A stretch of DNA of 64,000 nt, taken from the NCBI GenBank assembly GCA_016793635.1, contig JAEUMD010000019.1:124001-188000 (forward strand). The letters are read 5' to 3'. Source of the DNA: Hyphomicrobiaceae bacterium (GTDB lineage Bacteria > Pseudomonadota > Alphaproteobacteria > Rhizobiales > Hyphomicrobiaceae). Under the pieces are notes generated by a model, which was given only the letters and a program-made list of their open reading frames with translations, was not told the DNA's origin and ran no database searches. This document shows positions 52,569-55,914 of this stretch, in pieces. The stretch's first letter is position 1; the number at the start of each line of letters is the position of its first letter. A program made the translations under genes and the position numbers.

Positions 52569-53918
52569 TCAACCGATCGCGTCCCCGCTCCCTTCCTTCC
52601 AGACGATCGCATCGAACAGGCGGCGCAATTTCGCTCCCCGGTTCGGGTTCACGTTCTCGACCCAGGTGACGCGGCCGTCGAGGTGGGCGCGGAAATCGGC
52701 ATGACCATCCCGGTTCTGCGATCGAGGGCCATGCCTCGCGGCGTTGTGCAGGGTGGCTTTCAACCGGTCGAAGTCCTCGCGTGGCACGTTGACGTGGCGG
52801 TTGACCACGACGCCGGTGATGCACTGGCGCGCGTCGCTTCGCATCACGCGTTGCTTCGACGGGTGCACCTCATAGCCCTCTTCACGAGCGATCGAGCGAA
52901 CGGTGGCCAGGATCTTCTGCGCATTCCGGTCCGTCAGCGAACCGGAGACCGCCAGATCATCGGCGTAGCGCGTGTAGGTGGCGTCGAGCGAACGCGCCAG
53001 CCCCGTCAGCCGGACGTCGAGACGGTAAGCCGCGAGGTTCGCCAGCGCCGGCGATGTCGGTGCTCCCTGCGGCAGGTGACGGCTGTTGAAAAGCTGTCGT
53101 GTTTTCCAGTCGTGCCGCTCGGCCGGCGGGAGACGGCGAAAAACGGACAGCGGCACCGCTGAAGTACAGAGTCCCGTAAGGAGGCGGGCCACCGCCCAGG
53201 GATAGCCCAGCGCGCGGAAGATGCCGTGAACGCGGCGCACGGGCGTCGTGAGGAAAAAGTCCTTGAGATCCAGCGCGATCACAATGTCCTCACCCGCGTG
53301 CCGCGACGCGCCACTCAGGCAGGAGCGTCCGGCAACGAACCCGTGCGCGGCATCGTGCGCTCTTATTTTGTCGAGGATGCCTGACAGGATCTTGCGCTGT
53401 GCGGCCATCAGCAGCGGCTTCGGGCATTCGAGGAGGCGCGGCGGCCCCGTGCGCTTCGGCACGAAGGCGTAACGGTAGTTCTGCAGCATCGGAATATCGG
53501 TGCTGTATGCCTGTCGCCGGCTGTCCGCCAGCCAGTCCAGATGCTCGATCGGCACGCCGATCCAAACGGCGAGGTCATGTGGGGTTTCGAGGCGTGGCAC
53601 GTCGAGCGGAGCCAGGGATAGGCTTGAAGAAAAATGTGCTGGTTCGAGCGCGAGCGAGATCGACCGGCGGCTGTTGAGAAAGCGCTCGGTATAGTCAGGC
53701 AGGCCGTCGCGCTCGCGAAGAAAAGCCGTGATCCATCCCGGCGAGGGTGGGTAGTCGCTCGGTGCAGCTTGTATCGCCGCCCGCACCAGCTGCAGAAAGC
53801 GCCGCCGGCCCGCCTTGCCGATCACCTCCTGGCCCCGCTCGAAAAGACCGGCCTCGGTCCATGGGCCCGCGAGCCAAGCGGCCGCCAGATTTCTTGCGAT
53901 CAATTCCTCGAATCGCAT
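52569..53918 (-). CDS. Retron-type reverse transcriptase
   Basis: 449 aa RNA-directed DNA polymerase. RT motifs in order: FVPKRTGPPRLLECPKP (about 152-168), HGFVAGRSCLSGASRHAGED then IALDLKDFF (192-222), HLPQGAPTSPALANL (281-295), catalytic YADD (318-321), and CITGVVVNRHVNVPREDFD (366-384). The H of the retron NAxxH element is kept (GASRH, Asn replaced by Gly) and the VTG element is ITG. The C-terminal LDGRVTWVENVNPNRGAKL also fits retron RTs. There is a 110-residue N-terminal domain before the RT core. No maturase, integrase or DGR target is seen. The 540 bp upstream carries unusually strong hairpins. Confidence 0.88.
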   Translation of the reverse strand: MRFEELIARNLAAAWLAGPWTEAGLFERGQEVIGKAGRRRFLQLVRAAIQAAPSDYPPSPGWITAFLRERDGLPDYTERFLNSRRSISLALEPAHFSSSLSLAPLDVPRLETPHDLAVWIGVPIEHLDWLADSRRQAYSTDIPMLQNYRYAFVPKRTGPPRLLECPKPLLMAAQRKILSGILDKIRAHDAAHGFVAGRSCLSGASRHAGEDIVIALDLKDFFLTTPVRRVHGIFRALGYPWAVARLLTGLCTSAVPLSVFRRLPPAERHDWKTRQLFNSRHLPQGAPTSPALANLAAYRLDVRLTGLARSLDATYTRYADDLAVSGSLTDRNAQKILATVRSIAREEGYEVHPSKQRVMRSDARQCITGVVVNRHVNVPREDFDRLKATLHNAARHGPRSQNRDGHADFRAHLDGRVTWVENVNPNRGAKLRRLFDAIVWKEGSGDAIG

Positions 53919-53966
53919 GCGTCGCGATCATCCGATCGGATAGCTACGGGATGGGCGCCCCAACCA

Positions 53967-54015
53967 ATCACGTCTTGCGTGATGCTTCGACGCCGCGAGG
54001 CGTCCGGGCATCACG
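53967..54015. other. Nested and mutually exclusive hairpins upstream of RT
   Basis: An 8-bp stem (53978-53985 with 54008-54015), a symmetric 3x3 internal loop, then a 6-bp stem (53989-53994 with 53999-54004) closed by GCGA. The left arm can also pair with 53967-53972 (6 bp, 5-nt loop), so the two folds exclude each other. On the plus strand the loop is a GNRA tetraloop. A candidate structured RNA beside the RT gene. Confidence 0.6.
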
Positions 54016-54045
54016 CCGCCGAATGCTGGGGTAGAATTCACGCCC

Positions 54046-54060
54046 CCGGGGTAGCCCCGG
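54046..54060. other. 6-bp GC hairpin
   Basis: CCGGGG and CCCCGG arms with a TAG loop, between the nested hairpins and the long hairpin pair. Part of the structured region upstream of the RT. Confidence 0.5.
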
Positions 54061-54126
54061 AGGCACGACGCTCCAAGGCATGAAGCATCGTTCTCGGCTT
54101 GAGGCGCCCACCCCGTGCACAGGAAG

Positions 54127-54205
54127 CTAGTGTTGCGTCACTAATGCTTGGTTCCCGGTTGCGGAACGGTGGTCTGCCAAGCGTTAGTGACAAAAGCAAC
54201 ACTAG
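54127..54205 (+). ncRNA. Long bulged hairpin A (candidate ncRNA or MITE arm)
   Basis: Outer 10-bp stem (54127-54136 with 54196-54205), a 4-nt AAAA bulge on the 3' side (54192-54195), inner 15-bp stem (54137-54151 with 54177-54191; one non-Watson-Crick pair, which is U-G if transcribed from the plus strand), and a 25-nt loop beginning TTCCC. It has the same plan as hairpin B in inverted orientation. Whether it is transcribed is unknown. Confidence 0.6.
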
Positions 54206-54218
54206 AATCATCGAGTTG

Positions 54219-54295
54219 CTAATGTTCTTTTCGTCTCCGACACTTGGTCGATCGCAAGTTGCACTGGGAACCAAGTGTCGGAGACGGAACACTAG
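54219..54295 (-). ncRNA. Long bulged hairpin B, inverted partner of A
   Basis: Read on the minus strand: outer 9-bp stem (54287-54295 with 54219-54227, one G-U pair), a 4-nt AAAA bulge on the 3' side (54228-54231 on the plus strand is TTTT), a perfect 17-bp inner stem (54270-54286 with 54232-54248), and a 21-nt loop beginning TCCC. Outer arms (CTAGTGTT and its complement), bulge and loop start match hairpin A, while the inner stem differs with compensating changes. It has the same strand as the RT gene. Confidence 0.6.
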
Positions 54296-54461
54296 CCACG
54301 ACATTCATTGCATGCAAGGCGATGGCGCGCCCATTGTGCAATTCGATTTAGCACCGGTGAACATCAGCGGGCAAAACGCGAATTGCGTTGCATGCGCACC
54401 GCTCGTCGTTTATTTATCTATACTGTTTTGCGAAATTCGAATTCATTTCGACGGTGATCTC
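54296..54461. promoter_or_regulatory. AT-rich leader upstream of secreted-protein gene
   Basis: 166 bp between hairpin B and the next plus-strand gene, clearly more AT-rich than its surroundings (for example the stretch at 54408-54450 with TATACT). Probably a promoter region for the gene at 54462; a -35 element at standard spacing was not found. Confidence 0.35.
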
Positions 54462-55013
54462 ATGTTCACCCCGCTGGCATTTCGTTTTTTGGGTGGCTTG
54501 TTTTTGAGGGGCCTGGCAATCGGCAGCATCGCCCTGCCATTCCTCAACCAGCCGGCAATAGCCCAGATCTATGGCGGGGAGACGGCGGATTGCCGTTTGG
54601 ATTCAGAGGGCCGTATCATCAAGCGCTTACCTCGTGAGCCGGCCGAGCGAACTTCAGCGCAATGCGCAGCGGCGTGCTTGCAGTCGAGCACCAATCCTGC
54701 CGATCCCAACAGGTGCACCGGGTATAATTTCACCTGGACCATACATGCGTTACAAACCGGTTATGTGACCCCCTACGCGGATTCGCCGCGCGCCTGCGAA
54801 CTCCTGTTCGGCCCGCTCACCTTTGGAAAGGCATGGCGCGTCCAATATTCCACGGCCTGTATCTTACCGTGTGACGGCCCGCCGAAGCCGTGCGGGTATT
54901 TCGAGTCGATAGCCCCTCCGCCCGGATTCTTCCAGAAGCCGGACCCGCCGACGCGCTTCCTCGACCCGGCATCCCCGAGCGCGAAACAGCCTTTTCAGAA
55001 ACCGCCGCGATAG
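54462..55013 (+). CDS. Secreted Cys-rich hypothetical protein
   Basis: 183 aa with a signal peptide (FLRGLAIGSIALPFLNQPAIA). Mature part has about ten Cys (TADCRLDSEG, SAQCAAACLQ, PNRCTGYNF, ACELLFG, ACILPCDGPPKPCGY) consistent with disulphides; a PAN/apple-like pattern (Cys spacing around CAAACLQ and CTGYNF, then CELL) is possible. C-terminal 35 residues are Pro-rich. GGTGA precedes ATG 54462. Function unknown. Confidence 0.6.
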   Translation: MFTPLAFRFLGGLFLRGLAIGSIALPFLNQPAIAQIYGGETADCRLDSEGRIIKRLPREPAERTSAQCAAACLQSSTNPADPNRCTGYNFTWTIHALQTGYVTPYADSPRACELLFGPLTFGKAWRVQYSTACILPCDGPPKPCGYFESIAPPPGFFQKPDPPTRFLDPASPSAKQPFQKPPR

Positions 55014-55452
55014 CCGGCTGACGGCGACGCCAAGTCCCATGTCGCAACCAGATCTGGCTTCAGAGGATGAGCCAAGTCTCTCTTCGGTCGCGTGTCGTTG
55101 GTGAGCGCGCCCCCCATCGGGAACGGTTGCGTTGGGGGCCAGCCTCCGCGTCGATCTCGGCGGGCTCTTTCCTGCGGCGTTCTCCATAAGCACGGCCGCC
55201 ACACCGCTGCCGGTGCGCGCGCGGCCGCACCGTGCCAGTGCCAAGAATCGGTGCTAGGGTGCAATCCGTTGAGCGGGAGGCGCGGTGCGCTTCTATCGAA
55301 AGCGTGAATCGCGCCCCAAGCTATTGTTTGAGAGTGCTATTCACGGCTTTGATGGATCACTATTGCGACTCCATCTAGATCGATAGCTCTGTAGGAGAAG
55401 CCTGATGGGTGGCCGCCCGGCGGGCGGCGGGTGCCACACGCAGGATTCGCGC
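55014..55452. other. Intergenic region with degenerate REP copy
   Basis: 439 bp between secreted-protein genes. It contains the degenerate copy of the REP-like palindrome (55343-55375). Other short frames lack support; no terminator with a T-run was noticed. Confidence 0.45.
55343..55375. repeat. REP-like palindrome, degenerate copy
   Basis: Matches 31517-31548 over about 32 bases with a handful of substitutions and one inserted base (shared start ACGGC, TTGATGGATC, and TCCATC). The right arm beyond it no longer pairs, so this copy is decayed. Confidence 0.6.
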
Positions 55453-55914
55453 ATGTCGAAATTTACGCCGAGAGCACCTGGGACGAGCAACCGTGGGGAC
55501 GGCGCGCCCGCGCGTCGCCAATTCGCCGCGGTCGCACTCGCAGCGGCAGCGCTGCTCGGCACGCTCACGGTGTCCGGCACGCGACCGTCGCTCGCTGCCC
55601 CCACCAACGCGACCGACAGCCGGCCCTACGACACGAAGCTACTGCGTCTCGCCGAGCTACTTGGCGCAATCCACTACCTGCGGGAACTGTGCGGCGCCAA
55701 CGAAGGACAGTTCTGGCGCGACACGATGACGGAGCTGATGAAGTCGGAAGGCACCACGGCGATCCGCCGCGCACGCCTCACCCGCAGCTTCAATCAGGGG
55801 TACCGCAACTATTCGCGCACTTACAATATCTGCACGCCGACGGCGCAATCGACCATCGAGCGCTTCCTTTCGGAAGGCGCCGAGATCGCCGAAACGCTCG
55901 CCGTATCGCAATAG
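55453..55914 (+). CDS. TIGR02301 family secreted protein
   Basis: 153 aa. Signal or anchor (QFAAVALAAAALLGTLTVSG) then the family signature: PYDTKLLRLAELLGAIHYLRELCG, EGQFWRDTMTELM, RSFNQGYRNYSRTYNICTPTA. Two conserved Cys (ELCG, NICT) probably pair. It is restricted to Alphaproteobacteria and of unknown function. AGGA precedes ATG 55453. Confidence 0.85.
   Translation: MSKFTPRAPGTSNRGDGAPARRQFAAVALAAAALLGTLTVSGTRPSLAAPTNATDSRPYDTKLLRLAELLGAIHYLRELCGANEGQFWRDTMTELMKSEGTTAIRRARLTRSFNQGYRNYSRTYNICTPTAQSTIERFLSEGAEIAETLAVSQ

What the first reader, a model, noticed from the sequence alone, without database searches (positions are those of the whole stretch)
52569..54295. Retron-type RT with an atypical, highly structured upstream region
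A complete RT with YADD, a GASRH variant of the retron NAxxH element and a retron-like C-terminus lies next to about 400 bp packed with inverted repeats (53967-54015, 54046-54060, 54127-54205, 54219-54295). Retrons encode an msr-msd RNA just upstream of the RT, but here the region has two long hairpins in opposite orientation instead of one msd. It could be a new retron layout, an RT with two ncRNAs, or an RT next to an unrelated mobile repeat.
Basis: partly seen in the sequence, partly recalled or inferred. Interest (0 to 1): 0.85.

Follow-up and report, generated by a model that had tools for sequence, protein, structure and literature searches.

The report
Retron with a mobile repeat beside it
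A bacterial reverse transcriptase here has the usual retron template RNA right next to it, and the two striking extra hairpins are a common mobile repeat that landed beside it, so the layout is ordinary, although this widespread retron family has no recognised partner gene.

Summary
The hairpins are real, but belong to two unrelated things. (1) The ~200 nt next to the RT (53947-54117, minus strand) form a standard msr-msd: closing a1/a2 stem, priming AGC, two msr hairpins, one msd stem. A covariance model built from 37 relatives without the window finds it at E 1.8e-15 and finds the same RNA at 77 of 80 related RT loci; 17 of 26 pairs show changes on both sides. (2) The twin hairpins (54127-54295) are a 169-bp dispersed repeat: 15 full-length places in this genome, long matches in 19 of 99 genomes of the host's family, none found around 80 related RTs. 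A same-genus genome has the start of the retron RNA without the repeat and one CTAG in its place. One end matches an IS630-type element of a relative clearly, the other weakly; an IS630-type MITE is likely. The RT falls in PADLOC's retron classes RT_other/RT_outgroup, apart from type XIII, and has a conserved helical N-terminal domain without a PDB match; no neighbouring gene family recurs in more than 4 of 63 loci. Most likely a stand-alone retron making ~63-nt RT-DNA; effector unknown.

The parts
52569..53918 (-). Retron reverse transcriptase, 449 aa: helical N-terminal domain (about residues 1-105) plus RT core with GASRH, QGAPTSP and YADD
   Evidence: ORF; PADLOC RT_other 1.1e-153, RT_outgroup 4.1e-145, RT_XIII 1.4e-103; AF2 pLDDT 92.8, best PDB match retron Ec86. 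No NCBIfam model reaches its cut-off
53947..54117 (-). msr-msd non-coding RNA (predicted limits)
   Evidence: Covariance model without the window: 53941-54131, 84.9 bits, E 1.8e-15; one place in the own genome
54099..54117 (-). a1, 5' arm of the closing stem
   Evidence: inner part of the stem covaries in relatives (helix 1)
54098..54098 (-). Predicted priming (branching) G in CAAGC
   Evidence: AG invariant in 37 of 37 aligned relatives; role inferred from retron biochemistry (PMC6868368 passages)
54065..54092 (-). msr hairpin 1
   Evidence: window fold only, not in the RNAalifold consensus
54043..54062 (-). msr hairpin 2, family hallmark CUCCGGGG-CUA-CCCCGGGGG
   Evidence: Its 8-pair consensus stem is 100% paired in 37 relatives, 2 pairs with changes on both sides (helix 2)
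53977..54016 (-). msd stem-loop
   Evidence: Helices 3 and 4: changes on both sides at 11 of 12 pairs
53964..54026 (-). Predicted reverse-transcribed template, about 63 nt (limits inferred)
   Evidence: inference from the a2 position and a conserved GCAUU-type block
53947..53967 (-). a2, 3' arm of the closing stem
54127..54295 (.). 169-bp dispersed repeat with twin hairpins, ends CTAG...CTAG, likely an IS630-type MITE; not part of the retron
   Evidence: 15 full-length places; 27 of 30 flanks unrelated; locus without it in a same-genus genome; one end clearly, one end weakly like an IS630 element

Best explanation
An ordinary retron (ncRNA then RT) with a dispersed mobile repeat, most likely an IS630-type MITE, inserted 9 bp upstream of its ncRNA. 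Shown by computation: a conserved, covarying msr-msd directly upstream of a retron RT, and a repeat that is dispersed, independent of RTs and missing at the matching place in a same-genus genome. Inferred from retron biology: the RNA folds through a1/a2, the RT primes on the 2'-OH of the G at 54098 and copies about 63 nt of the msd, giving a branched RNA-DNA (msDNA), most likely used in phage defence. No effector gene was found to recur next to the family. The best guess is that the conserved helical N-terminal domain acts as the effector or docks one encoded elsewhere; this last step is weakly supported. The repeat is a passenger that moved the original upstream sequence 165 bp away and may have changed expression.
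For: Model R1, built from 37 relatives without the window, hits the window at E 1.8e-15, next best 10.5 bits, and gives nothing significant in the 15 loci of the other repeat copies (best E 0.28). ncRNA upstream of the RT at 77 of 80 related loci; 40 of the 43 loci not used in training hit. Structure: 96.2% of cells paired against 79.5% in shuffles; 150 double-change cells against 36.9. RT class, tree, fold. Repeat: 15 full-length places, sharp CTAG ends, 27 of 30 flanks unrelated, matches in 27 of 99 genomes of the family, the own one included, 19 of them over at least 100 of 169 nt, no match in the 80 related RT loci, same-genus locus without it, IS630-type element with similar ends in G366.
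Against: No RNA or msDNA data. No IS630 (PF13358) transposase in the own assembly. Of 6 PF13358 loci in 8 genomes, only L167 has ends like the repeat, 86.7% over 30 nt (E 2.2e-6) at one end and 74% over 31 nt (E 0.17) at the other. One side of three repeat copies (L006, L012, L014) shares a related flank of about 135 bp, so flanks are not all independent. One related locus with upstream sequence, L087, gave no RNA hit. At the same-genus locus the 8 and 14 nt around CTAG are diverged, so the empty site rests on spacing and the shared CTAG, read by eye; the contig starts inside the ncRNA, the fragment is known by DNA similarity (89% over 64 nt), the model gives it only E 0.22, and no RT was found in that genome. 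No NCBIfam retron model reaches its cut-off. No effector was found.
Confidence: 0.9

Rival explanations
1. The twin hairpins are a second functional RNA of the retron (RT with two ncRNAs, or a new layout).
For: They lie 9 bp from the msr-msd, fold very stably and would be on the same transcript if the promoter is further upstream.
Against: No similar sequence in the loci of 80 related RTs; none within the fetched flanks at the ncRNA of the 6 other family genomes that carry it (L196 holds little upstream DNA); 14 other full-length places without RT motifs within 1.5 kb; missing at the same-genus locus.
Confidence: 0.04
2. The repeat insertion has silenced or rewired this copy, so the retron is present but inactive in this strain.
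For: Insertion 9 bp upstream of a1; no sigma-70-like promoter found in 53900-54600.
Against: The RT reading frame and the RNA structure are intact. Such promoter scans say little for Alphaproteobacteria.
Confidence: 0.25
3. It is a type XIII retron (Mx162/Mx65 class) that has lost its partner genes.
For: RT_XIII is the next PADLOC class after RT_other and RT_outgroup, and myxococcal RTs of 427 and 485 aa that fit Mx65 and Mx162 score best as RT_XIII.
Against: The window scores 511 bits as RT_other against 345 as RT_XIII; the tree puts it in a separate set (91/93, under the 95 mark); model R1 finds nothing significant at the Mx65-like or Mx162-like loci (best E 0.074).
Confidence: 0.08

Closest known systems
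PADLOC retron RT classes RT_other (PDLC02949) and RT_outgroup (PDLC03740)
   Same: Match including the N-terminal part (residues 5-443 and 5-440), 1.1e-153 and 4.1e-145
   Different: Only protein models; PADLOC also has msr-msd models (PMC9252829 passages), but whether they cover this RNA could not be tested here
Type XIII retrons Mx162 (Retron-Mxa1) and Mx65 (Retron-Mxa2)
   Same: Extended N-terminus, and an Asn-substituted NAxxH in Mx65 (PMC6868368 passages); short msd like Mx65 (its 65-nt size is recalled)
   Different: RT 37% and 36% identical to the Mx65-like L151 and Mx162-like L128, separate set in the tree, RNA not found by R1
Retron Ec86 RT (PDB 7v9x, 7v9u)
   Same: RT core fold, TM 0.79-0.82 on the target
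   Different: Ec86 RT is about 320 aa and aligns from window residue 108 on, so it lacks this N-terminal domain; it has a separate effector (title of 7v9x)
IS630-family elements and MITEs
   Same: CTAG at both ends of inverted repeats, one CTAG at the locus without it, one end clearly like an IS630 element in G366
   Different: No transposase found in this genome's assembly; other end only weakly alike; unusual twin-hairpin interior

Membership tests
Retron | Retron-clade RT with YADD and region X (NAxxH or variant) | tested here: met
   YADD and GASRH; PADLOC classes and tree. Mx65-like RTs L151 and L152 show GAAPH
Retron | Structured msr-msd next to the RT with a closing a1/a2 stem | tested here: met
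Retron | Priming G in an AGC-like motif after a1 | tested here: met
   CAAGC at 54101-54097; AG invariant in 37 of 37 relatives
Retron | msDNA with a 2'-5' branch | not testable with these tools
   Needs RT-DNA extraction
Retron | Effector gene or fused effector domain | tested here: inconclusive
   No neighbour family in more than 4 of 63 loci and none shared with the window; N-terminal domain without a PDB match
Type XIII retron | RT scores best with the type XIII model and falls in that clade | tested here: not met
IS630-derived MITE | Short, transposase-free, many copies with sharp inverted ends | tested here: met
   15 full-length places, CTAG ends; one side of 3 copies shares a flank
IS630-derived MITE | TA-type target (CTAG) present once at a site without the element | tested here: met
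   Same-genus locus with one CTAG at equal spacing, flanks diverged, read by eye; target preference of IS630 is recalled
IS630-derived MITE | Ends shared with an autonomous IS630 element | tested here: inconclusive
   L167 in G366 has a DDE_3 transposase and CTAG at both ends; one end E 2.2e-6, the other E 0.17; 5 other PF13358 loci lack such ends; none in the own genome

The most novel reading that the evidence does not exclude
A large retron family in at least six phyla works as a two-part system, one RT protein plus one RNA, with the conserved helical N-terminal domain as built-in sensor or toxin and no partner gene.
Probability: 0.3. Interest if true: 0.6.

Novelty: new member of a known kind. 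Interest (0 to 1): 0.3.

Why it matters
It removes a false lead (a supposed two-hairpin retron). It also gives a tested structure for the msr-msd of a widespread retron family that reached no Rfam threshold here, and it raises a clear question: how does a retron family without a recurring neighbour act, and what does its conserved N-terminal domain do.

Tried and rejected
Rfam at gathering threshold: nothing in the window; at E up to 5 on 53900-54350: four matches far below their gathering scores, none a retron. Repeat as a REP/BIME of a RAYT transposase: no PF01797 in the own genome. An IS630 transposase in the own genome: none. Empty site for the whole retron: the two flanking genes lie on different contigs in 7 of 7 relatives that hold both, so its limits stay unknown. 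An effector next door: no gene family in more than 4 of 63 loci, and those of 4 are close Burkholderiaceae kin or differ in strand and distance (blastp 1e-8, top groups printed, some flanks cut by contig ends, no positive control, distant families could be missed). A known fold for the N-terminal domain: best Foldseek E 1.7. Viral contigs: 1 distant relative among 72 stretches. Literature: the main retron classification paper (Mestre 2020) is not held, so what PADLOC's RT_other and RT_outgroup correspond to there is not known to me. Paper searches: among the rows listed (2 to 20 per search) I saw no title or abstract on this family's RNA; the library covers open-licence papers only. Papers seen as passages: PMC6868368, PMC8934634, PMC12548924, PMC8867640, PMC9252829, PMC12405507; none was read whole. 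That L151/L152 are Mx65 is inferred from the 427-aa length (1284 nt in PMC8934634) and the substituted Asn; that L128 is Mx162 from its 485-aa length, which is recalled.

Full report
Observation. The upstream 402 nt fold far better than shuffles (z -11.2).

What the upstream region is. Counting away from the RT there are two blocks. Block 1 (53947-54117) folds as a closed unit: a long closing stem, two hairpins on the 5' side, one long stem-loop on the 3' side. I examined 62 of these 80, chosen to thin out close kin, for a hairpin of the form GGGG, 1-3 nt, CCCC upstream of the RT: 57 had it; 5 did not in that form (L086, L089, L090, L091, L116), though the model later hit all five. I aligned 37 of the 57, without the window (A3). 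The consensus has a closing stem, an invariant AG after a1, the hallmark hairpin and a two-part msd stem; 17 of 26 pairs have changes on both sides, 96.2% of cells pair against 79.5% in shuffles, and sliding the pairing by one column drops this to about 44%. The first msr hairpin of the window is not part of the RNAalifold consensus. The model from these 37 hits the window at 53941-54131 with E 1.8e-15; the next match has 10.5 bits. It hits 77 of the 80 related loci; two of the three misses (L047, L078) have almost no upstream DNA, the third is L087. Of the 43 loci not used in training, 40 hit. Two of the 82 rows are short reverse-strand echoes of the msd stem (L098, L102) and were not counted; the other rows are the window, L024 and L025, of which L025 is the same contig as L091. 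None of 7 more distant RT loci in that call (L026-L030, L035, L117) hit at E up to 0.01. In the host's family, 7 of 99 genomes, the own one included, hold one place each, with the RT beside it in all 7 and no copy of the repeat within the fetched flanks in the other 6 (L196 has only 282 nt upstream). By the depositors' titles the loci with a hit include Pseudomonadota, Myxococcota, Planctomycetota, Acidobacteriota, Actinomycetota and a Gemmatimonas MAG.

What the twin hairpins are. Block 2 (54127-54295) is one unit of 169 bp. The own genome has 15 full-length places (86-100% identity) and one half-length place. The copies share sharp CTAG...CTAG ends, with small changes in some copies. Of 30 flanks of 200 bp, 27 resemble no other; one side each of L006, L012 and L014 shares a related stretch of about 135 bp. 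None of the 14 other full-length places nor the half copy has RT motifs within 1.5 kb. Matches to the repeat occur in 27 of 99 genomes of the family, the own one included; 19 have a match over at least 100 of 169 nt, the other 8 only over about 27-37 nt; identity goes down to about 70%. No blastn match at E up to 0.01 lies in any of the 80 related RT loci, whose flanks reach up to 4 kb. In the same-genus genome G364, contig C90 begins inside the matching ncRNA (window 54055-54118, 89% identical); there GTGC, 8 nt, one CTAG, 14 nt and GCATGCAAGG stand where the window has GTGC, 8 nt, the whole repeat from CTAG to CTAG, 14 nt and GCATGCAAGG (read by eye, the 8 and 14 nt are diverged). The model gives this 76-nt fragment only E 0.22, and no RT was found in G364, as expected if the contig break cuts it off. 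In G366 an element of 1174 bp with an IS630-type transposase (DDE_3 plus HTH) starts and ends with CTAG; one end matches the repeat at 86.7% over 30 nt (E 2.2e-6), the other at 74% over 31 nt (E 0.17). Five other PF13358 loci from 8 genomes have no such ends, and the own assembly has no PF13358 match. I conclude that it is a mobile repeat, most likely an IS630-type MITE; the CTAG target of IS630 is recalled knowledge.

The RT. PADLOC ranks RT_other (1.1e-153), RT_outgroup (4.1e-145), then RT_XIII (1.4e-103). Five sampled relatives rank the same way, whereas myxococcal RTs of 427 and 485 aa, which fit Mx65 and Mx162, rank RT_XIII first. Pfam gives RVT_1; no NCBIfam model reaches its cut-off. 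The tree (36 rows, midpoint root) places the window in a seven-row alphaproteobacterial set (96/92) inside a 21-row family set (91/93, under the 95 mark), apart from a 12-row set with the Mx65-like and Mx162-like rows (97/97). The review PMC6868368 (passages) says that myxococcal retron RTs have extended N-termini and that Mx65 has a substituted Asn in NAxxH, so GASRH and the N-terminal extension are within retron variation. The full-length model has pLDDT 92.8 and best PDB matches to retrons Ec86, Eco2 and Eco7. The N-terminal 132 residues form a helical domain (pLDDT 89.1) without a PDB match (best E 1.7). The host belongs to the same family as a Hyphomicrobium MAG contig that equals G289:C16.

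How it most likely works. The ncRNA and RT form one unit; a1/a2 pairing presents the G at 54098; the RT copies about 63 nt (53964-54026) into a branched RT-DNA. The template limits, the priming step and a role in phage defence are inferred from studied retrons. Within up to 4 kb of 63 related loci no gene family was found in more than 4 loci, and none was shared with the window's neighbours; the sets of 4 are close Burkholderiaceae kin or proteins at varying strand and distance (limits in Tried and rejected). The effector is therefore either the N-terminal domain, something encoded elsewhere, or absent. I favour the N-terminal domain, with low confidence. The repeat may have altered transcription; no promoter-like site was found by a simple scan.

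Verdict. Ordinary retron anatomy plus an unrelated mobile repeat. The more interesting leftovers are the widespread retron family without a known partner and its N-terminal domain.

Noticed in passing
L167 (G366:C137), 924-2097: A 1174-bp IS630-type element with CTAG at both ends, one end clearly like the 169-bp repeat: a candidate autonomous partner.
   Followed up: partly
L006, L012, L014, beside the repeat: Three copies of the repeat share a related ~135-bp stretch on one side: a larger composite element or a second repeat.
   Followed up: no
window 54462-55013: 183-aa ORF that looks secreted and Cys-rich by eye, no Pfam hit, similar DNA beside the same site in G364.
   Followed up: no
window 55405-55914: DUF2385 protein (PF09539); it and the dehydrogenase on the other side of the retron lie on different contigs in 7 of 7 relatives that hold both.
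   Followed up: no
L188 (G355:C29): Same-genus genome G355 carries a different retron-like RT (38% identity).
   Followed up: no
genomes around G297: 18 of 27 myxococcal genomes have three or four retron-like RT matches; 13 of 27 hold one of this family.
   Followed up: partly
L067 4001-5320: A Paraburkholderia member has an in-frame stop at codon 35 of its RT match: a decayed copy or a later start.
   Followed up: no
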